A stretch of 8,104 nt of DNA from positions 1 through 8,104 of the forward strand of contig JAJZQR010000240.1 of NCBI GenBank assembly GCA_021806765.1, written 5' to 3'. This document shows, one piece after another, positions 358 through 8,104 of this stretch; position 1 is the first letter of the stretch, and the number at the start of each line of letters is the position of its first letter. The position numbers and the translations under genes are program-made. Source of the stretch: Chloroflexota bacterium. GTDB lineage: Bacteria > Chloroflexota > UBA6077. Below the pieces are notes generated by a model. The model had not been told where the DNA came from and searched no databases. It saw only the letters and a program-made list of their open reading frames with translations.

Positions 358-2328
358 TCATGATTGATCGGTCGGGTCCCACCTCCACAGCTGGCCGCCC
401 AGCGTCAGGGCGTAGACGACCCCGTTCTCGAGGAATCGGGGCGAAGGCGCTACGGCCACCGGGGAGCGATCACCCAGGGTTTCTCCCAGCCTCTGCCACC
501 TGGCGCCTTCGTCCTGAGAAACGAAGACACCGTCGCCGCCGGCCGCCAGCAGCGTGTGGCTTCGAGCGAAGTCGGGGACAGCGACCAGGGAAACCACCGG
601 GAGGCCATGGGTTCCGACCCAGGCCGGCAGCCAGATGGGCCTTATCCCCTCGCGCGTTCGCTCCGTGGCATCGGGAACGATGTGATAGACGGCCTCGGCG
701 TTACCTATGAAGAACTTCTGGTCCTGGCTGAAGGTGTCCGGCACTGCCAGAATCGCCGTCCTGGTGTCGCTGTCCCTGGAGAAGAGGAGCGACCAGGGCG
801 CATCGGGCAGGGTGCGGCTCCAAACCCGCAGCCGGCCTCGCCGGTAGTACAGGGGCACCCGCCAGGTGGCTACCAGCAGGACGTGCTTCCCATCGGCGTC
901 GAGGGCGAGGGTGGCCGCCACCAGAGTCTCGTCGTCGGCGGGAGCCTCCAGCGGGCTCCAATTGGCTCCTCCATCTGCAGACCAGTAAACCGCATTGGCC
1001 GCTGCTGCAGCCATGACGCTATCCTCGGAGAAGGTCGGGGACAGGGCCAGCAGGTTCAACCCCTGGCCGCTCAAGCCCAACCCGTGCCAGCTGGCTCCCC
1101 GGTCGAGGCTCTGGTAAAGGCCATTGGAGGTGGTGGCGTAGAGCCGTCCGTCGGTGGCGAAGGAGGGGGAAAGGGCCAGGGCGCTGATGGTGATCCCCTG
1201 AATTCCGGCTGAAGCCGGTTGCCAGCTCTGGCCGCTGTTCTCGGAGCGGAACACCCCCTCGGTGAGTCCCCAGGTGAAGAGGGTGGAATCGGAGTCGAAC
1301 TCTGGTGACAGGGCGAGGTTGACCAGATAGGTGGCGTCCAACCCCTGGTTGGCTCTCTCCCAGCTCCTCCCGCCGTCCCGGGACTCGATCACGCCTCCAC
1401 CGACCAGCCCTGCCAGGATGACCCGGCCGGCGGGCTCTGCTTCGGCACCCCTGTCGGAGACGGCGAGGCTCAGCACCATCTCAGGCTCAGCGGCAACGAG
1501 GCTCCACGATTGCCCCCCATCGGGGGACAGGCTGATGCCCTGACCGACGGCTGCGGCTATCACCGGGTCCTGGGGGAACTCGGGAGAGAGGGCGAGGGCG
1601 TTGATGGACAGGTCCGGCAGACCGGAGTTGAGGGAGTGCCAGCTGGCCCCGCCGTCGGCGGAGCCGAGTATGCCCTCCTTCTCCGTTCCCGCAAAGATCC
1701 TGCGGTCGGTGGCAAAGTTCGGTGAGATCACCAGACACTGGATGCTGTTGTCGGGTTGAGATGCCCAGACCTGCTTCCAGGAGTTGCCACCGTTGGTGGT
1801 CTGCTGAAGCCCGCCCTCCGTAGCGACGAAGGCGGTTCGGTCCTTTTCGAAGGCGGGTGACATGGCCAGGCCGATGACGGAGAGGTCCGGCAACCCGGAA
1901 TTGCACGGTTTCCACTCATCGCCCCCGTTTCCCGAGAAGAACACGCCGTCGGCCAGGGTGCCGGCCATGACGGCGATGCCGCCGGCAGTGGGGACAGCGG
2001 CCAGGGCAACCACGCCGGATCCATCGCCCACCCGGCCCAGGAGGGTCCAGCTATCCCCTCCGTCGGTGGAACGATGCACGCCTCCATCCGCTGCTCCCGC
2101 GAACAGGGTGCGATCCTTCGGGAAGAACGGAGAGCAGACGATGGACTGGGCAGCGAAGCTGCTGAGCGGATCGCCGCTGATCTTCCAACTCTTGCCGCCA
2201 TCCTCCGAGCGGAAGATGCCGGCATTGGTGGCTGCAAAGGCCAGTTGGTCCTTCCGGAAATCCGGAGATAGGACTATCGCTGGAATGGTGCCACCCTGGC
2301 GTCCAGTCAGGGGAACCCAATGACCCAC
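358..2328 (-). CDS. Asp-box (BNR) repeat beta-propeller protein, no signal peptide
   Basis: A 656-residue protein made almost wholly of repeats. Eleven Asp-box motifs (S-x-D-x-G-x-S-W type) begin near residues 41, 87, 132, 177, 223, 268, 316, 362, 407, 450 and 604, about 45 residues apart. Each is typically preceded by an 'ALSPxFxxDxxxFA' strand. This is the fold of sialidase-like, VPS10/sortilin-like and Ycf48-like propellers. No catalytic sialidase residues are obvious, so a scaffold or binding role is more likely than glycosidase activity; the function is unknown. The GTG at 2326-2328 is chosen because GGGAGGGG lies 5 nt upstream of it; a TTG at 2350-2352 would add 8 residues. The first residues are polar and enter the first blade directly, with no signal peptide or membrane segment. 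It is divergent from the GntR gene. Confidence 0.8.
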   Translation of the reverse strand: MGHWVPLTGRQGGTIPAIVLSPDFRKDQLAFAATNAGIFRSEDGGKSWKISGDPLSSFAAQSIVCSPFFPKDRTLFAGAADGGVHRSTDGGDSWTLLGRVGDGSGVVALAAVPTAGGIAVMAGTLADGVFFSGNGGDEWKPCNSGLPDLSVIGLAMSPAFEKDRTAFVATEGGLQQTTNGGNSWKQVWASQPDNSIQCLVISPNFATDRRIFAGTEKEGILGSADGGASWHSLNSGLPDLSINALALSPEFPQDPVIAAAVGQGISLSPDGGQSWSLVAAEPEMVLSLAVSDRGAEAEPAGRVILAGLVGGGVIESRDGGRSWERANQGLDATYLVNLALSPEFDSDSTLFTWGLTEGVFRSENSGQSWQPASAGIQGITISALALSPSFATDGRLYATTSNGLYQSLDRGASWHGLGLSGQGLNLLALSPTFSEDSVMAAAAANAVYWSADGGANWSPLEAPADDETLVAATLALDADGKHVLLVATWRVPLYYRRGRLRVWSRTLPDAPWSLLFSRDSDTRTAILAVPDTFSQDQKFFIGNAEAVYHIVPDATERTREGIRPIWLPAWVGTHGLPVVSLVAVPDFARSHTLLAAGGDGVFVSQDEGARWQRLGETLGDRSPVAVAPSPRFLENGVVYALTLGGQLWRWDPTDQS

Positions 2329-2333
2329 TTGAT

Positions 2334-2341
2334 CCCCTCCC
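2334..2341 (-). promoter_or_regulatory. Shine-Dalgarno that fixes the propeller gene start
   Basis: On the minus strand GGGAGGGG is followed by the 5-nt spacer ATCAA and then GTG at 2328-2326. This is a better purine-rich site and spacing than anything before the alternative TTG at 2352-2350, so the GTG is preferred. Confidence 0.6.
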
Positions 2342-2466
2342 TTGGCTCGCAAGCCCCCTTCTTGGACCGACGGGGGTCTGCGGTAATCTGCGAACGCCCG
2401 TGCATCGGCGACGGTGTCGCCGGGAGGACGGACGATGATCGACCGGATGAAGGTCTCGGAGGCCTG

Positions 2467-2611: not shown

Positions 2612-3328
2612 ATGGATCAGGCCGTCTTCCCCTCCCTCCAGCAGAGCACCCTGCGGATGTCCGCCCTCAGCGTCATTCGGGACAACATCCTCAGCGGGGC
2701 GCTCCGGCCGGGGCAACAGTTGGTTCAGGCGGAGATCGCGGCTCAGATGAACGTCAGCCGTGCCCCTATCCGTGAGGCCTTGCGGCAGTTGGAAGAAGAG
2801 GGGCTCGTCGAGAGTATTCCCTATCGGGGTACCTTCGTATCCAGGGTGACGCAACGCGACATCCTCGAACTGTACAGCCTCCGGGGGGCTCTGGAGTCCA
2901 TGGCGGCGCGGCTGGCCATCTCTCGCTGCAACGAGCAGGACATCGCCCAGTTGGAGGCTATCGTCGCCCGCATGTCGGAGGCCGCGGACGCAGCCGACTA
3001 TCAGGCCATCAACGTAGCCGATCTGGAGTTTCACACTCAGCTGTGCGTTCTCTCCGATCACCAGCATCTGTTGAGAACCTGGAAGATCAACGCCAACCTG
3101 ATCCGGCGGATCCTCTCCTTCCGCAACAGGCTCAGCACCCCCCATGTGGTCGTCGCCATGCACAAGCCCATCGTGGAGGCCATCGGGAACAGGGATGCGG
3201 TTGCGGCCCAGCGGGCCATCGAGGCCCACTGTATCGACTCGGGCGAAGCCCTGTCCTCCATCTGGCCCGACGACGAGGCCGATCTCGGTAGAGAGGTTGC
3301 CCACATCTATGCGGATCTTGGTCATTAA
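2612..3328 (+). CDS. GntR family transcriptional regulator, FadR subfamily (FCD domain)
   Basis: A 238-residue protein of normal length for the family. Residues 14-78 form the winged helix-turn-helix: 'SALSVIRDNILSGALRPGQQL' (written here in part), then recognition-helix sequence VSRAPIREALRQLEEEGLV and the wing RGTFVS. Residues 82-215 form the all-helical FCD effector domain, with the usual metal ligand set Asp137, His141 (DLEFH), His184 (MHKPI) and His206 (EAHC). FCD proteins bind small carboxylates through this metal, so a ring-opened ureide or downstream acid is a reasonable inducer. AAGGTGG at 2595-2601 lies about 10 nt before the ATG. Its 3' end overlaps the racemase start by 20 nt, which ties the two in expression and marks it as the likely local regulator. 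Confidence 0.93.
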   Translation: MDQAVFPSLQQSTLRMSALSVIRDNILSGALRPGQQLVQAEIAAQMNVSRAPIREALRQLEEEGLVESIPYRGTFVSRVTQRDILELYSLRGALESMAARLAISRCNEQDIAQLEAIVARMSEAADAADYQAINVADLEFHTQLCVLSDHQHLLRTWKINANLIRRILSFRNRLSTPHVVVAMHKPIVEAIGNRDAVAAQRAIEAHCIDSGEALSSIWPDDEADLGREVAHIYADLGH

Positions 3329-4007
3329 CCCGAACACCTCCGTTGCCATGACCCGGGCCATCGCCCGGGAGTTGCTGGCGGTGAAGAGGCCGGACACCGA
3401 ACTGGAGGTGGTGAACCCCGAGGAGGGGCCCGAGGCCATCGAGTGCGCCTACGACGAGAGTCGGGCCGTCCCAGAGATGCTCAAGTTGGTCCAGAAGGCC
3501 CCCGAGCAGGGGTTCGATGCCGTGGTCATCGCCTGCTTCTCCGATCCCGGTCTGGACGCCGCCCGGGAGTTGGTGGAGATCCCGGTGGTGGGCATCCAGG
3601 AGGCCTCCATGTACCTGGCCGCCATGCTGGGGTCCTCCTTCGGCGTCCTGACCACTCTGGAACGGCGGGTGCCGGTGCGCAGGCAGTACGCGGCCAGCCT
3701 CGGGCTGGGTGAGAAGTTGGTGGCCACGCCCGTGTTGAACATCCCCGTGGCCGAAACCGTCGGCAGTCTGACCCGGATGAAGGAAACGGCTCTGGCCAGG
3801 TCCCGGGAGGCCCTGGAGAAAGGGGCCGAGGTGCTGATCCTGGGATGCGCCGGCCTCGGGGATTGGGCCCATGACCTGCAGCAGCAGATGGGTGTTCCGG
3901 TCATTAACCCCAACGCCGCAGGACTCAAGATCGCCGAACTGCTGGTAGACCTGAAGCTGGCCCAGAGCAAGGTCTGCACCTTCCAGCGTCCGCGCCACGT
4001 CGTTTAG
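3309..4007 (+). CDS. Hydantoin/allantoin-type racemase (Asp/Glu racemase superfamily)
   Basis: A 232-residue protein starting MRILVINPNTS, the standard N-terminus of the hydantoin racemase branch. The two catalytic acid/base cysteines are visible: Cys76 in VVIACFSDPG and Cys180 in LILGCAGL. These are almost exactly the positions of the known hydantoin racemases (Cys76/Cys181) and close to those of allantoin racemase. The family racemises 5-substituted hydantoins, or allantoin, at C5 without a cofactor in the cytoplasm. The frame is open further upstream to 3144, but the ATG at 3309 matches the family N-terminus and overlaps the gntR end by 20 nt, suggesting translational coupling. The sequence alone does not separate hydantoin from allantoin as substrate. 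The hydantoinase-like gene at 7446 supports a cyclic ureide pathway. Confidence 0.88.
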   Translation: MRILVINPNTSVAMTRAIARELLAVKRPDTELEVVNPEEGPEAIECAYDESRAVPEMLKLVQKAPEQGFDAVVIACFSDPGLDAARELVEIPVVGIQEASMYLAAMLGSSFGVLTTLERRVPVRRQYAASLGLGEKLVATPVLNIPVAETVGSLTRMKETALARSREALEKGAEVLILGCAGLGDWAHDLQQQMGVPVINPNAAGLKIAELLVDLKLAQSKVCTFQRPRHVV

Positions 4008-4023: not shown

Positions 4024-4213
4024 CGTGGTCTCGCGGCCCGGAGAGGTCCTCAGCTTTCGTTTGCTGCGCTGTCGCGGAATGGCCGCGCTTAATCCTATTC
4101 GCATCAGAGGGGAGGTGGTGAACTGCCAACCGGGAAGAGTCGGATCCAATGCTGTCTCTATCGCGCAGCCCCATCGTGTCGGTTGTCCAATCCGTGAGAT
4201 TGCCACAGCAAAC

Positions 4214-4220
4214 AAGGAGG
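4214..4220 (+). promoter_or_regulatory. Strong Shine-Dalgarno that fixes the S-component start
   Basis: AAGGAGG with a 6-nt spacer precedes the ATG at 4227-4229. It decides for this start over the in-frame ATG at 4149, which would add 26 polar, arginine-rich residues and has no comparable site. Confidence 0.85.
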
Positions 4221-4226
4221 ACTGGA

Positions 4227-4832
4227 ATGGCAAATGCTGCCGTCGCGAAGGAAAGGCCGAGGTTTACGATCCCTCTGGCGAAGATGTCTCTCAAGGCGTG
4301 GCCTGGCCGCACGGACACCAAAGGCATCGTCAGTTCGCTCATGCTCTCGCTGGTGATGATTGGCATCCTGCAGTTCGGAGAGAGGCTGGATACCATCCTC
4401 ACCGGCGGGCTATTCCCCGTGTCGGGCCGGGTCATCTCCATCACCATGATCGGCCTCGGAACGATGCTGTATGGCGTCGTCGGTGGTCTCATCGTCTCGG
4501 AGATCAATCCCCTGATCGCCACCGCCACGGGCACCAGCCCCATTGCTCCCTTCTTCTTCCTGACCAACGCCGTCCAGGTGCTGTCCGCCTATATCACCGG
4601 TAAGATCTTCGACGACGTCATAACCTGGAAGGCGACCATAACGAATGGCGTTCTGGCCACTGTCTTTCTCGTCGCGCTGTACATCCCGCTGCACATCCTT
4701 TACTTCCACATGCCGGTCGAGAAGATGATGTCCCTGTACGCCATGCAGAGTCTGTTCTCCCTCACAGTTCCCGCCGTCCTCCTTCGAATCCTGCTGAAGG
4801 TGGTTAGGGACGCGGGATTCGTGGAGGAGTAG
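4227..4832 (+). CDS. Putative substrate-binding (S) component of an ECF transporter
   Basis: A 201-residue, strongly hydrophobic protein with five to six probable membrane segments: about residues 33-50, 69-91, 104-125, 138-160 and 170-192, the last possibly split. The N-terminal 30 residues are basic and soluble. The segment after the second helix, SEINPLIATATGTSPIAPFF, is rich in small and polar residues and may line the substrate site. Size, helix number and position directly before an EcfT gene and two ECF ATPase genes make it the S subunit that would choose the substrate. I do not recognise it as any of the vitamin S families (RibU, ThiT, BioY, FolT, PanT). Its flanking racemase and hydantoinase-like genes suggest a cyclic ureide such as a hydantoin or allantoin; this is inference from context. 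Confidence 0.7.
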   Translation: MANAAVAKERPRFTIPLAKMSLKAWPGRTDTKGIVSSLMLSLVMIGILQFGERLDTILTGGLFPVSGRVISITMIGLGTMLYGVVGGLIVSEINPLIATATGTSPIAPFFFLTNAVQVLSAYITGKIFDDVITWKATITNGVLATVFLVALYIPLHILYFHMPVEKMMSLYAMQSLFSLTVPAVLLRILLKVVRDAGFVEE

Positions 4833-4927: not shown

Positions 4928-5725
4928 ATGCCCAAGTTCCTGTTCGCTTCAGCGCTGGAGGAGGACGGGGTCACCTTCTTCTCCAGGCTCCATCCCACTA
5001 CCATGTTGATAGCCCTGGGCTGCATGGTGGTGATCATCTTCTCGACCCTGAACTTCCTGGCCCTGGTGGGGCTCATGGCCTTCCTCTTCCTCATCGTGCT
5101 CCTCGACGGTATGCCGAGGCAAAGCACCTTCACCGTGCTGCTGGTGGTGATCCCGCTCTGTTTCTTCATCACCATGATCCAGGCGCTGACCAATCCCAAC
5201 GAGATCGTCGCCCATCTGTACCTGTTTGGGATGGGGATCCTGGTTTCTCTGCAGGGCATCGTCCTGGGGCTATCCATCACCCTTCGCGTGGCGCTGATGG
5301 CGCTGATCATGACCATCTTCTTCACCGTGGTGCACCCGGTCAAGCTGACCAGAGCACTCTACGACATGGGGATGCCCTTCAAGTTTGCCTACACCTTCGT
5401 CCTGGCGCTTCGCTTCCTGCCGTTGATCCTGGATGAGCTGGCCACGATCAACAACGCTCAGAAGTCTCGAGGCTACGACATCGATAGGGTCAACCCGGCC
5501 ATCAAGGTGCTGAAGATGTTCCCGCTTACCATCCCGCTCATCCTGAGCGCCCTGAAGCGGGCCGACACCATCGCCCTGGCCATGGACCTGAAGGCGTTCA
5601 ACGCCTATCCCAAGCGGACCTTCTTTATCGGCCTGCAGAAGGGCAGCGCCGACACAACGGTTCGGGCCGTCAGCGTCCTGGCGATGGTGTTCTTCGTCGT
5701 AGTCACTTTCCAGGGGATACTGTAA
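4928..5725 (+). CDS. ecfT: ECF transporter transmembrane (T) component, EcfT/CbiQ-like
   Basis: A 265-residue protein with membrane helices near residues 26-60, 68-86, 96-135 and 244-262, and a long amphipathic coupling domain between about 137 and 235. The first coupling motif is present as AQKSRGYDID (Ser180-Arg181-Gly182), the usual x-R-G motif that docks on the ATPases. The second, normally an A-R-G-F-type motif, reads MDLKAFNAYPKRT, with Lys222-Ala223 where Arg-Gly is usual. The following Tyr-Pro-Lys-Arg-Thr matches the family. GGGAGGT at 4917-4923 lies just before the ATG. The protein links the S subunit to ATP hydrolysis by A1 and A2. A1 starts 2 nt after its stop, so the T, A1 and A2 genes form one tight unit. 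Confidence 0.9.
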   Translation: MPKFLFASALEEDGVTFFSRLHPTTMLIALGCMVVIIFSTLNFLALVGLMAFLFLIVLLDGMPRQSTFTVLLVVIPLCFFITMIQALTNPNEIVAHLYLFGMGILVSLQGIVLGLSITLRVALMALIMTIFFTVVHPVKLTRALYDMGMPFKFAYTFVLALRFLPLILDELATINNAQKSRGYDIDRVNPAIKVLKMFPLTIPLILSALKRADTIALAMDLKAFNAYPKRTFFIGLQKGSADTTVRAVSVLAMVFFVVVTFQGIL

Positions 5726-5727
5726 CC

Positions 5728-6549
5728 ATGTCGCTAATTGAATTCGAAAACGTCAGCTTCCGCTACTCCGGAACGAGCCGGATGATCCTTGAGGATGTGA
5801 GCTTTTCCATAGAGGAGGGGGAGTCTGTCGCCGTCTTCGGAGAGGGCAAGAGCACCCTGTTGATGTGCCTGTGCGGGGCAATTCCGCATCTGCTCCCCGG
5901 CAAGTTCTCCGGGCACGTTCGGGTCGATGGGATGGACACCGAGACTCACAGGATTGCCGAGATCTCCCGAAAGGTCGGGGTGGTGCTGCAGGATCCCGAG
6001 AACCAGCTGTTTAACCTCACCGTCGAGGGGGATGTGGTGTTCGGGATGGAGAACCTTCAGGTCCCTTCGGAGGATATGGAGGCAAGGATGCTGGAGGCGC
6101 TCCAGACGGTTCGGATGAGCGACTTCCGACGGCGGATGTCGCACGAGCTGTCCGGTGGTCAGAAACAGCGCGTCGCCATCGCCTCGGTGCTGGCCATGGA
6201 GTCGAAGATCCTGGTGATGGACGAGCCGACCCGTGAACTCGACCCGATGGGCACCGAGGAGGTGTTCGATGTGTTGAGTCGCCTGAAGCAGCAGGGCAAG
6301 ACGACCGTTATTGTCGAGAACGATCCCGAGCACTTGGCCCCGTTGGCCGATAAGATGGTGCTGTTGCGGGATGGCCGTCTGGAGATGGTCGCGGAGCCCC
6401 GAGAGTTCTACCGAAGGATCAAGGATGACAAGAAGATACGGTTTCCCCAGGTGACCCAACTGTACTTCCGGCTGGAAGACAAGATGGATCTGGGTCCGAA
6501 GGTCCCCTTGACCCTGGAGGAAGGAGTGGAACTGTTTTCCCGTGCCTAA
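5728..6549 (+). CDS. ECF transporter ATPase A1, with degenerate Walker A and H-loop
   Basis: A 273-residue ABC ATPase of the ECF/Cbi type. Visible motifs: Q-loop Gln88 (VVLQDPENQLF), signature LSGGQ at 141-145, Walker B ILVMDE at 161-166 and D-loop RELDP at 169-173. Two key sites are abnormal. Walker A reads AVFGEGKST around Lys41, whereas the family has a G-x-N-G-x-GKS/T loop; about three residues are missing and the first Gly of GxxxxGK is absent. The H-loop reads IVENDPE, with Asn198 where His is expected. The frame is intact on both sides and the downstream sequence is normal, so this is not a frameshift. The protein may still serve as a structural partner and donate its LSGGQ to A2. It overlaps the A2 gene by 8 nt. 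Confidence 0.92.
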   Translation: MSLIEFENVSFRYSGTSRMILEDVSFSIEEGESVAVFGEGKSTLLMCLCGAIPHLLPGKFSGHVRVDGMDTETHRIAEISRKVGVVLQDPENQLFNLTVEGDVVFGMENLQVPSEDMEARMLEALQTVRMSDFRRRMSHELSGGQKQRVAIASVLAMESKILVMDEPTRELDPMGTEEVFDVLSRLKQQGKTTVIVENDPEHLAPLADKMVLLRDGRLEMVAEPREFYRRIKDDKKIRFPQVTQLYFRLEDKMDLGPKVPLTLEEGVELFSRA

Positions 6550-7393
6550 TAACGACGTGATCATCGAAGTTCAGCGGTTGGGTCACACCTATCCCAACGG
6601 CGCGAAGGCGCTGAACGGGATCGATTTGCAGATCCGAAGGGGGGAGTTCCTGGGGATTATCGGCCAGAATGGGGCCGGCAAAACGACGTTGGTGAAGCAC
6701 TTCAACGGCTTACTCAAGCCAACCGCAGGTGTGGTGGTGGTCAAGGGTATAGACACCAGGGACGCGCAGGTTTCCAGGCTGGCTCGCCATGTGGGCTACG
6801 TGTTCCAGAACCCCGACCACCAGATCTTCGCCAGTAAGGTGCGAGAGGAGATCTCCTTCGGCCCAAAGAATATTGGGATGGATCGGGCCGTGATCGAGAA
6901 GAACGTTGAGGAGGCCATCGACGTACTCAATCTGAGGGATGTCGTGGACATCCATCCCTTCCGGCTCAGCCGAGGGCAGCGACAGCGGTTGGCCATCGCC
7001 GGTGTCCTGGCGATGAGACCCGAGATCTTCATGCTGGATGAGCCTACCGGTGGTCAGGATCGCGAGCAGGTGCTGCGGCTACGAGAGGTGCTTCAGCAGC
7101 TTAACGATGCCGGCCACACCATCATACTGATCACCCATGACATGGAGCTTCTGGCGGAGTCGACGCGTCGGGCTATTGTCGTCCGTGGCGGGCGGGTGAT
7201 CCTGGATGGGCCACCGGCGGAAGTGTTCAAACACACCGAGGAGCTGCGCAGGACCTTCCTGACCCCGCCTCAAGTCTCTCGGCTCACCCTGGAGCTGGGT
7301 TTCTCCCGGCCGGCTATGTCGGTGGAGGAGGCCGCGGAGGAGCTGCTAAAGCGAGCCGAAAGCCGCAGGCCCGGAGTCGAAGCGCAGGGATAG
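6542..7393 (+). CDS. ECF transporter ATPase A2, with variant LSRGQ signature
   Basis: A 283-residue ABC ATPase that pairs with A1 under EcfT. Walker A is complete (GQNGAGKTT at 41-49, Lys47), as are Q-loop Gln89 (YVFQNPDHQIF), Walker B FMLDE (Glu167) and the H-loop ITHD (His199). The signature is LSRGQ at 142-146: Arg144 replaces the second-position Gly of LSGGQ. The D-loop is GGQD. The C-terminal 50 residues (PPQVSRLTLELG region) match the usual ECF ATPase tail that contacts the partner. The start is a GTG overlapping the A1 end by 8 nt; a second GTG at 6557 is possible but would trim the first strand. With Walker A from A2 and signature from A1, one fully canonical ATP site can form. Confidence 0.93.
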   Translation: MPNNDVIIEVQRLGHTYPNGAKALNGIDLQIRRGEFLGIIGQNGAGKTTLVKHFNGLLKPTAGVVVVKGIDTRDAQVSRLARHVGYVFQNPDHQIFASKVREEISFGPKNIGMDRAVIEKNVEEAIDVLNLRDVVDIHPFRLSRGQRQRLAIAGVLAMRPEIFMLDEPTGGQDREQVLRLREVLQQLNDAGHTIILITHDMELLAESTRRAIVVRGGRVILDGPPAEVFKHTEELRRTFLTPPQVSRLTLELGFSRPAMSVEEAAEELLKRAESRRPGVEAQG

Positions 7394-7445: not shown

Positions 7446-8104
7446 ATGGTCAAGAGTATCGATACGGTAATCAAGGGCGGCCTGGTGGCGGCCGGCGGCT
7501 CCGTCGGCGCGGCCACGGTGGCGATAAGCGATGGGAGGATCGCTGCCTTGCTGGCCCCGGGCATGCTTCCTCCCGAGGCGGCTCAGGCCCGGCGGGTCGA
7601 CGCCACTGGCATGATTGTCATGCCCGGTGTGGTAGACGCCCACGTGCACATGCGCAATTTCAATCTCCAGGCCGACACCCATACGAGCGTGAGCACTGCC
7701 GCGGCCTTCGGTGGGGTGACTACCATTATCCCTTATCAGCAGGGTAAGGTGGGGATGCCGGTGAAGGAGTTCCTCACCATTTTGCGTGACGAGGGTGAGG
7801 CCGAGTCGCTAGTGGACTTCGCCATGCACTGCCGGCTCCAGGCCCCCGAGCGAGGTGTGACCAGACAGTTCGCCGATGCGTTCGACCTTGGGGTCACCAG
7901 CTTCAAGATGTTCATGGCCTACCGCAAGCGGGGCATCATGTGGGACGACTATAGCCTCTACGAGGCGCTGGACTACATCGGCCAGCGGGGAGGCATGTTC
8001 TGCTGCCACGCCGAGAACGGCGACATCATCGACTACCTCGAGGACAAGTACCAGGCGGAGGGCCGCTACACCCCAGAGAACTACCTGGCGGTTCGTCCCC
8101 CCGA
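7446..8104 (+). CDS. Dihydropyrimidinase/hydantoinase-family amidohydrolase (3' end outside window)
   Basis: The first 219 residues of a protein expected to be about 450-480 long; the frame is open to the window end. An N-terminal beta-sandwich part (residues 5-55) leads into the TIM barrel. Metal-site residues are visible: His66 and His68 in VDAHVHMR, the carbamylated lysine Lys154 in SFKMFMAY, and His188 in CHAENGD. Tyr159 corresponds to the substrate-contacting Tyr of D-hydantoinases, five residues after the lysine. HAENGD and KMFMAY are typical of dihydropyrimidinases and hydantoinases rather than allantoinases. Arg70 after HxH recalls dihydroorotase and allantoinase, so the exact ring substrate is open. 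It hydrolyses the cyclic amide of hydantoins or dihydropyrimidines to N-carbamoyl acids. GGAG about 9 nt before the ATG and a 52-nt gap after A2 suggest cotranscription. Confidence 0.9.
   Translation, partial: MVKSIDTVIKGGLVAAGGSVGAATVAISDGRIAALLAPGMLPPEAAQARRVDATGMIVMPGVVDAHVHMRNFNLQADTHTSVSTAAAFGGVTTIIPYQQGKVGMPVKEFLTILRDEGEAESLVDFAMHCRLQAPERGVTRQFADAFDLGVTSFKMFMAYRKRGIMWDDYSLYEALDYIGQRGGMFCCHAENGDIIDYLEDKYQAEGRYTPENYLAVRPP

What the first reader, a model, noticed from the sequence alone, without database searches (positions are those of the whole stretch)
5728..7393. Complementary degeneration of the two ECF ATPases leaves one canonical and one dead composite ATP site
In an ABC dimer each ATP lies between Walker A of one subunit and the signature of the other. 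Here A2 supplies intact Walker A, Walker B and His199, and A1 supplies intact LSGGQ: that site is complete. The second site would combine A1's shortened Walker A and Asn198 with A2's LSRGQ: every defect in the pair falls in this one site. Established knowledge: such asymmetry occurs in heterodimeric exporters such as TM287/288, BmrCD, TAP and CFTR. ECF importers are usually described with two working sites. The inference is a one-site ECF motor.
Basis: partly seen in the sequence, partly recalled or inferred. Interest (0 to 1): 0.75.

Follow-up and report, generated by a model that had tools for sequence, protein, structure and literature searches.

The report
Importer motor with one ATP site
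This gene cluster encodes a bacterial nutrient importer whose two different engine subunits appear to share a single working ATP site, because one subunit has lost the loop that normally grips ATP, and the same loss is shared by a whole family of related proteins.

Summary
Window A1 (5728-6549) has a Walker A three residues short (FGE-GKST) and Asn198 for the H-loop His. Of the 72 protein clusters nearest to it, all 70 that cover the P-loop share the contraction and all 72 have Asn; SGGQ is kept. They form one clade (quick tree, SH-aLRT 99), seen in one genome taken as Chloroflexota and two taken as Negativicutes. A2 keeps P-loop, Q-loop and His in 73 of 73 aligned rows, but its signature is LSRG[QER] in all. 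AlphaFold2 joins strand to helix through 2 residues, against 6 in a full-P-loop relative. So the A2-core/A1-signature site looks complete and the other has no ATP cradle. Corrections: non-SGG A2 signatures also occur in 68 of 104 surveyed pairs with normal A1 P-loops, and the 'dead' site keeps Lys41, Gln88, Asp165 and Glu166, so it is remodelled, not rotted. More widely, 69 of 69 well-scoring ECF pairs with two or more non-consensus motifs have them in one composite site, in either polarity. A one-site motor is the best reading; no biochemistry was possible.

The parts
5728..6549 (+). A1: ECF ATPase with contracted P-loop (273 aa)
   Evidence: best NCBIfam match ECF_ATPase_1, 227 bits, below its equivalog cut-off of 315; Pfam ABC_tran
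5836..5856 (+). A1 degenerate Walker A, FGEGKST (aa 37-43), three residues shorter than GxxxxGKST
6148..6162 (+). A1 intact signature LSGGQ (aa 141-145), which serves the complete site
6217..6246 (+). A1 intact Walker B and D-loop, MDEPTRELDP (aa 164-173)
6313..6327 (+). A1 altered H-loop, VENDP (Asn198 in place of His)
6542..7393 (+). A2: partner ECF ATPase with complete nucleotide-binding core (283 aa)
   Evidence: best NCBIfam match ECF_ATPase_2, 260 bits, below its cut-off of 330
6659..6688 (+). A2 full Walker A, IGQNGAGKTT (aa 40-49)
6965..6979 (+). A2 altered signature LSRGQ (aa 142-146), facing the A1 core
7034..7063 (+). A2 Walker B LDEPT and unusual D-loop GGQDR (aa 165-174)
7130..7141 (+). 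A2 H-loop ITHD (His199)
4928..5725 (+). T component (EcfT/CbiQ family)
   Evidence: Pfam CbiQ, E 1.5e-32
4149..4832 (+). S component (true start may be nearer the conserved PLAKMS motif); 54-59% identical to the proteins at the same place in L085-L087
   Evidence: Pfam ECF_trnsprt, weak, below cut-off; tblastn
7446..8104 (+). hydantoinase/dihydropyrimidinase-like amidohydrolase, cut by the window end
   Evidence: TIGR02033 E 1.3e-42, below its cut-off
3309..4007 (+). Asp/Glu/hydantoin racemase
   Evidence: Pfam PF01177, E 7.3e-58
2612..3328 (+). GntR/FCD regulator
   Evidence: Pfam GntR and FCD

Best explanation
The cluster encodes a dedicated S-T-A1-A2 ECF importer, probably for a cyclic ureide or N-carbamoyl compound, driven by a structurally asymmetric ATPase heterodimer. 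SHOWN: A1's P-loop is contracted by three residues and its H-loop His is Asn in the clade members examined; A2's core and A1's LSGGQ are intact; the model of A1 has no phosphate-binding loop. INFERRED: ATP binds and is hydrolysed only at the site made of A2's Walker A, Walker B and His199 with A1's LSGGQ and D-loop. The second site (A1 core plus A2 LSRG) holds no nucleotide in the normal way. It may act as a permanent hinge or latch, in which Lys41 and Glu166 could pair with each other or with A2. One ATP per cycle would then close and reopen the dimer to drive S-component expulsion and re-docking through EcfT.
Against: No binding, hydrolysis or transport data. Lys41, Thr43, Gln88, Asp165 and Glu166 are invariant in the clade rows that cover them, which a freely decaying site would not show; some nucleotide or phosphate contact could remain. 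The dimer was not modelled and coordinates were not inspected, only the secondary structure. Non-SGG A2 signatures also go with full A1 P-loops (68 of 104 pairs), so LSRG may be harmless. One A2 relative, P0143, has Walker B DK instead of DE. The survey was partly sampled by homology to A1 and A2, its rows are related, and two pairs dropped for low scores (L307 and one pair of L193) carry changes in both sites.
Confidence: 0.7

Rival explanations
1. A1 still binds ATP (or ADP) loosely through Lys41, the Walker B Asp/Glu and the adenine-side contacts, so both sites bind but only one hydrolyses, as recalled for heterodimeric exporters such as TM287/288.
For: Lys41, Thr43, Gln88, Asp165 and Glu166 invariant. 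Nucleotide occupancy at degenerate sites is recalled from exporter work. Even the normal L. delbrueckii ECF shows ATP in one site and ADP in the other (passages).
Against: The loop that wraps the beta phosphate is absent in the model, a larger change than the point substitutions recalled for exporters. H-loop and opposite signature are altered as well.
Confidence: 0.2
2. A1 is an early pseudogene or assembly error, and the real transporter uses an A2 homodimer.
For: A three-residue loss would be explained by a 9-base deletion.
Against: Present in 70 of 70 clusters covering the region, with strong conservation of the rest; genes adjacent and overlapping in the window and adjacent in L085-L087. 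A2 itself has LSRG rather than LSGG, so an A2 homodimer would have two altered signatures.
Confidence: 0.03
3. The contracted loop is a different but working nucleotide-binding turn, and the dimer uses two ATPs by new chemistry.
For: G-x-[AGSC]-K-[ST]-T is conserved as a motif of its own, and Asn198 is invariant.
Against: A 2-residue turn leaves little backbone to surround phosphates. No described fold with such a loop is known to me (recalled, not searched). His and the opposite signature are altered too.
Confidence: 0.07

Closest known systems
Group II ECF transporters (L. delbrueckii ECF-FolT2/ECF-CbrT, EcfA-EcfA')
   Same: Two different ABC ATPases on one EcfT with an S component; same ATPase fold.
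   Different: [quoted passage not shown] PMC10368641, passages). Here A1 lacks the P-loop and H-loop His, and A2 has LSRG.
Group I ECF transporters with their own ATPases (CbiMNQO, BioMNY)
   Same: S, T and A genes in one operon, one dedicated motor; the top structural match, tied with others, is CbiO 5x3x.
   Different: The described ones named in PMC6828968 (passages) import cobalt, nickel or biotin, besides other metabolites. The substrate here is unknown, and the operon carries hydantoinase and racemase genes.
Heterodimeric ABC exporters with one degenerate site (TM287/288, BmrCD, TAP, MsRv1273c/72c)
   Same: Defects of the two subunits combine in one composite site (recalled).
   Different: Exporters with full transmembrane domains; as recalled, their degenerate site loses the Walker B Glu but keeps a P-loop. 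Here Glu166 is kept and the P-loop is lost. Papers on them seen only in search listings with abstract starts.
Fused tandem ECF ATPases of Methanoculleus and relatives
   Same: Same polarity: A1 half has Q-loop Asp and often H-loop Gln, A2 half has LSRGE.
   Different: A1 P-loop is full length; the two domains are fused.

Membership tests
ECF transporter | EcfT/CbiQ transmembrane subunit in the operon | tested here: met
   Pfam CbiQ E 1.5e-32 in the window and 3.2e-26 in L086
ECF transporter | Pair of ECF-type ABC ATPases | tested here: met
   Best NCBIfam models are ECF ATPases for both, though below the equivalog cut-offs; best structural matches are ECF/CbiO ATPases (A1 only)
ECF transporter | S component | tested here: inconclusive
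   Pfam ECF_trnsprt E 2.4e-4, below the gathering score; the L086 homologue matches no Pfam family at E 1e-5; conserved next to T, A1 and A2 in L085, L086 and L087
ECF transporter with two consensus ATP sites (as described for group II) | Complete Walker A, Q-loop, Walker B, H-loop and LSGGQ in both ATPases | tested here: not met
   A1 Walker A contracted, A1 His to Asn, A2 LSRGQ
ABC ATPase heterodimer with one degenerate composite site (works like) | Non-consensus motifs of both subunits fall in one composite site | tested here: met
   A1 Walker A and H-loop plus A2 signature; A2 core and A1 signature intact
ABC ATPase heterodimer with one degenerate composite site (works like) | Loss of the catalytic Walker B Glu in the degenerate site (recalled for exporters) | tested here: not met
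   Glu166 kept in 73 of 73 rows
ABC ATPase heterodimer with one degenerate composite site (works like) | Only one site hydrolyses ATP | not testable with these tools
   Needs ATPase assays

The most novel reading that the evidence does not exclude
A natural class of ECF importers runs on a single ATP: one ATPase subunit has lost its phosphate-binding loop and acts only as signature donor and hinge. More widely, ECF motors have become one-site several times, in both polarities, by complementary degeneration of a single composite site.
Probability: 0.55. Interest if true: 0.78.

Novelty: new variant of a known kind. Interest (0 to 1): 0.66.

Why it matters
The order and number of ATP events in ECF transport is open: the L. 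[quoted passage not shown] A motor that by its own sequence can use only one site would give a direct test of whether one ATP is enough to expel the S component, without mutating a two-site machine. The survey also suggests that ECF ATPase pairs can be sorted into two-site, site-I-degenerate and site-II-degenerate types from sequence alone.

Tried and rejected
Assembly error or pseudogene: rejected. The idea that a non-SGG A2 signature arose together with the A1 loss: rejected, because 68 of 104 surveyed non-clade pairs with a full A1 P-loop have one (examples). An apparent second case of P-loop loss, P0151, is an N-terminally cut fragment and was dropped. Q-loop 'defects' of P0181 and P0228 are also cut-end artefacts (sequences); their H-loop and signature changes stand. 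The L004 cluster counts as a two-defect case only through its Q-loop Glu.

Rows dropped before counting: L063 (both domains under 90 bits, not ECF-like); for one search also 8 pairs of the first survey and 4 of the second with a domain under 150 bits (listed). Of these, L307 (altered signature in both subunits) and the first L193 pair have changes in both sites, so without the cut there would be two mixed pairs. The two surveys share one place: L186 and L012 are the same stretch of G001; it has no defect.

A search for the full-P-loop sister group in 301 genomes of the phylum of G001 found nothing; the tool warns that such an empty answer shows nothing, so the A2 partners of that group remain unknown. 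L088 came up with the A1 profile but is a fused ATPase with a full P-loop, so not a member. A model of the A1-A2 dimer was not made: a joined chain is not a sequence of this window.

Literature: the listings show no paper whose title or abstract start describes a degenerate ATP site in an ECF transporter or an ECF importer tied to hydantoinase. Most listed papers were not opened; passages of four were seen. The library holds only open-licence papers.

Full report
WHAT IS THERE. The window holds, on the + strand, a GntR/FCD regulator, an Asp/Glu racemase, an S component, an EcfT (CbiQ) subunit, two ECF-type ATPases (A1, A2) and the start of a hydantoinase-like gene. A1 and A2 overlap by 8 bases.

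NOT AN ERROR. A protein search with A1 (1673 matches, best 120 listed) returned a block of 72 clusters (P0001-P0072) that stands apart from most of the rest. Aligned with the window, the stretch from Gly38 to Lys41 has 4 residues in 71 of 71 rows that cover it (P0071 and P0072 are fragments), against 7 residues in 39 of 39 covering outgroup rows (P0101, a fragment without that region, groups with the clade). Asn198 is present in 73 of 73 rows and SGGQ in 73 of 73 (P0040 reads ISGGQ). P0001 has Ala for the D-loop Asp172. A profile search (1849 matches, best 120 listed) brought back P0001-P0070 and no new member; the other 50 listed (P0241-P0290) are longer, 453-511 aa, ATPases. In the quick tree (SH-aLRT only, long-branch warnings) 72 rows sit on one branch with support 99: the 70 labelled rows (window and 69 clusters of at least 240 aa), P0101, and F116_1, which is identical to P0061 and is the L086 A1. 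The program counted 3 label changes because those two were not labelled. The nearest group (9 rows, P0077 and relatives; joint support 92) has a full P-loop but Gln in place of His.

WHERE IT OCCURS. At E 1e-85 the A1 profile rang in 2 of 400 genomes of the phylum of G001 (taken as Chloroflexota from the title of L012) and in 2 of 300 of the class of G002 (taken as Negativicutes from L060); only 6 to 8 candidates per genome were scored. Three of these four are clade members (L085, L086, L087); L088 is a fused ATPase with a full P-loop. Names given to clade proteins by their sources are Chloroflexota (P0005), Negativicutes (P0042), Sporomusaceae BoRhaA (P0061), Firmicutes (P0066) and one Sphingomonadaceae MAG (P0008), which I did not follow up. 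L086 lies on a contig of 243,614 bases, the length given for P0061, so it is probably that organism. All three loci have S, T, A1 and A2 in this order; these proteins are 54-59%, 45-47%, 51-57% and 49-59% identical to the window's. L086 and L087 also carry an allantoinase-type hydrolase, a hydantoinase/carbamoylase-family amidase (both over the family cut-offs), an AroM-type protein, an aminotransferase and, in L087, an aspartate dehydrogenase-like gene below cut-off. Their hydrolases are only 28% identical to the window's over the part held; L085 has one 53% identical, a luciferase-like monooxygenase and a frame that by eye resembles the racemase.

THE PARTNER. Of A2's 120 listed relatives (7357 matches), the 72 under 320 aa were aligned with the window: LSRGQ 39, LSRGE 32, LSRGR 2; P-loop, Q-loop and His complete in 73 of 73; Walker B DE in 72 of 73 (P0143 has DK); D-loop GGQD 63, GGAN 7, GGMD 3. 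Not all of these 72 are known to stand beside a clade A1.

STRUCTURE. AlphaFold2 on the 37-row alignment (mean pLDDT 93.5) gives strand 33-38, two residues, helix from 41. P0077 with its full P-loop (17 rows, 90.6) gives strand 40-44, six residues, helix from 51. So the model lacks the loop that holds the phosphates. The fold is otherwise that of ECF ATPases.

IS THE ASYMMETRY SPECIAL? Two surveys. (a) 146 pairs sampled by homology (106 fused proteins, 40 loci; L063 dropped): A2 P-loop 146 of 146, A2 Gln 146 of 146, A2 His 139 of 139 assessable, A1 SGG 146 of 146; but A2 SGG 40 of 146, A1 His 103 of 146, A1 Gln 85 of 135 (two of the 50 are cut-end artefacts), A1 full P-loop 104 of 108, where 3 of the 4 exceptions are this clade and the fourth, P0151, is a cut fragment. 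Many fused proteins in the list lack the N-terminal P-loop; the search's length limit favours such cut forms. (b) 100 loci anchored on EcfT, chosen without regard to ATPase motifs (the 30 listed loci each from the phyla of G001 and G006, 20 of 30 from that of G003, 20 picked down the list from that of G418): 57 pairs in 56 loci; the first-domain P-loop is full in 56 of 56 that show it. In nine of these pairs the other site is altered: second-subunit His lost, first-subunit LSVGQ, LSVSM, LSQGQ, LSAGQ, LSIGL or LSEGL, and in L227 and L230 also Walker B Glu to Asp. After dropping pairs with a domain under 150 bits, 138 and 53 remain; those with two or more non-consensus motifs number 59 and 10, and in all 69 the motifs lie in one composite site (60 in site II, 9 in site I, 0 mixed). 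Of the dropped pairs, two (L307, one pair of L193) would be mixed. Collapsed at 50% identity, 12 clusters: 9 site II (one resting on L004's Q-loop), 3 site I, 0 mixed. The rows are related and survey (a) favours site II, so this is a strong pattern rather than a formal test.

HOW IT MOST LIKELY WORKS. A2's Walker A, Walker B, Gln and His199 with A1's LSGGQ form one complete site; A1's core with A2's LSRG forms a site without a cradle. That reading uses the established head-to-tail geometry of ABC dimers (recalled; the passages describe nucleotide on one ATPase facing the LSGGQ of the other). One ATP per cycle would then drive the opening and closing that expels and re-docks the S component. 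The invariance of Lys41, Thr43, Gln88, Asp165, Glu166 and Asn198 says that the second site has a conserved job, perhaps as a latch; this part is unexplained.

COMPARISON AND NOVELTY. In the L. [quoted passage not shown] No listed paper's title or abstract start describes a degenerate ATP site in an ECF transporter; most were not opened. One-site asymmetry is known in exporters (search listing, and recall). This is therefore a new variant of a known kind: it works like the asymmetric exporters but belongs with the ECF importers, and it removes the P-loop rather than the catalytic Glu.

Noticed in passing
L193, L194, L195, L199, L200, L202, L207 (phylum of G001, taken as Chloroflexota) and L227, L230 (phylum of G006): ECF pairs with the opposite site degenerate: second-subunit His lost (SSS, SPN, SSN, TTS), first-subunit signature LSVGQ/LSVSM/LSQGQ/LSAGQ/LSIGL/LSEGL, first-subunit D-loop altered in five, Walker B Glu to Asp in L227 and L230.
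   Followed up: partly
P0204, P0247-P0282 and relatives (fused ECF ATPases, several named Methanoculleus): A1 half has Q-loop Gln to Asp (VFDD) and often H-loop Gln, A2 half LSRGE: a parallel site-II degeneration with full P-loops.
   Followed up: partly
P0077, P0087, P0099, P0100, P0102, P0103, P0104, P0106, P0112: Nearest group to the clade in the tree: full P-loop but Gln for the H-loop His in 9 of 9; their A2 partners were not found.
   Followed up: partly
window A1 aa 41, 43, 88, 165, 166, 198: Invariant residues kept in a site that seems unable to hold ATP normally.
   Followed up: no
   Followed up: no
window 358-2352 (-): Large ORF with sortilin/BNR beta-propeller repeats (Pfam), next to but opposite in strand to the importer operon.
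   Followed up: no
L086 and L087: Importer operon with carbamoylase, allantoinase-like, AroM, aminotransferase and (L087) aspartate dehydrogenase-like genes, suggesting a ureide or N-carbamoyl amino acid pathway.
   Followed up: partly
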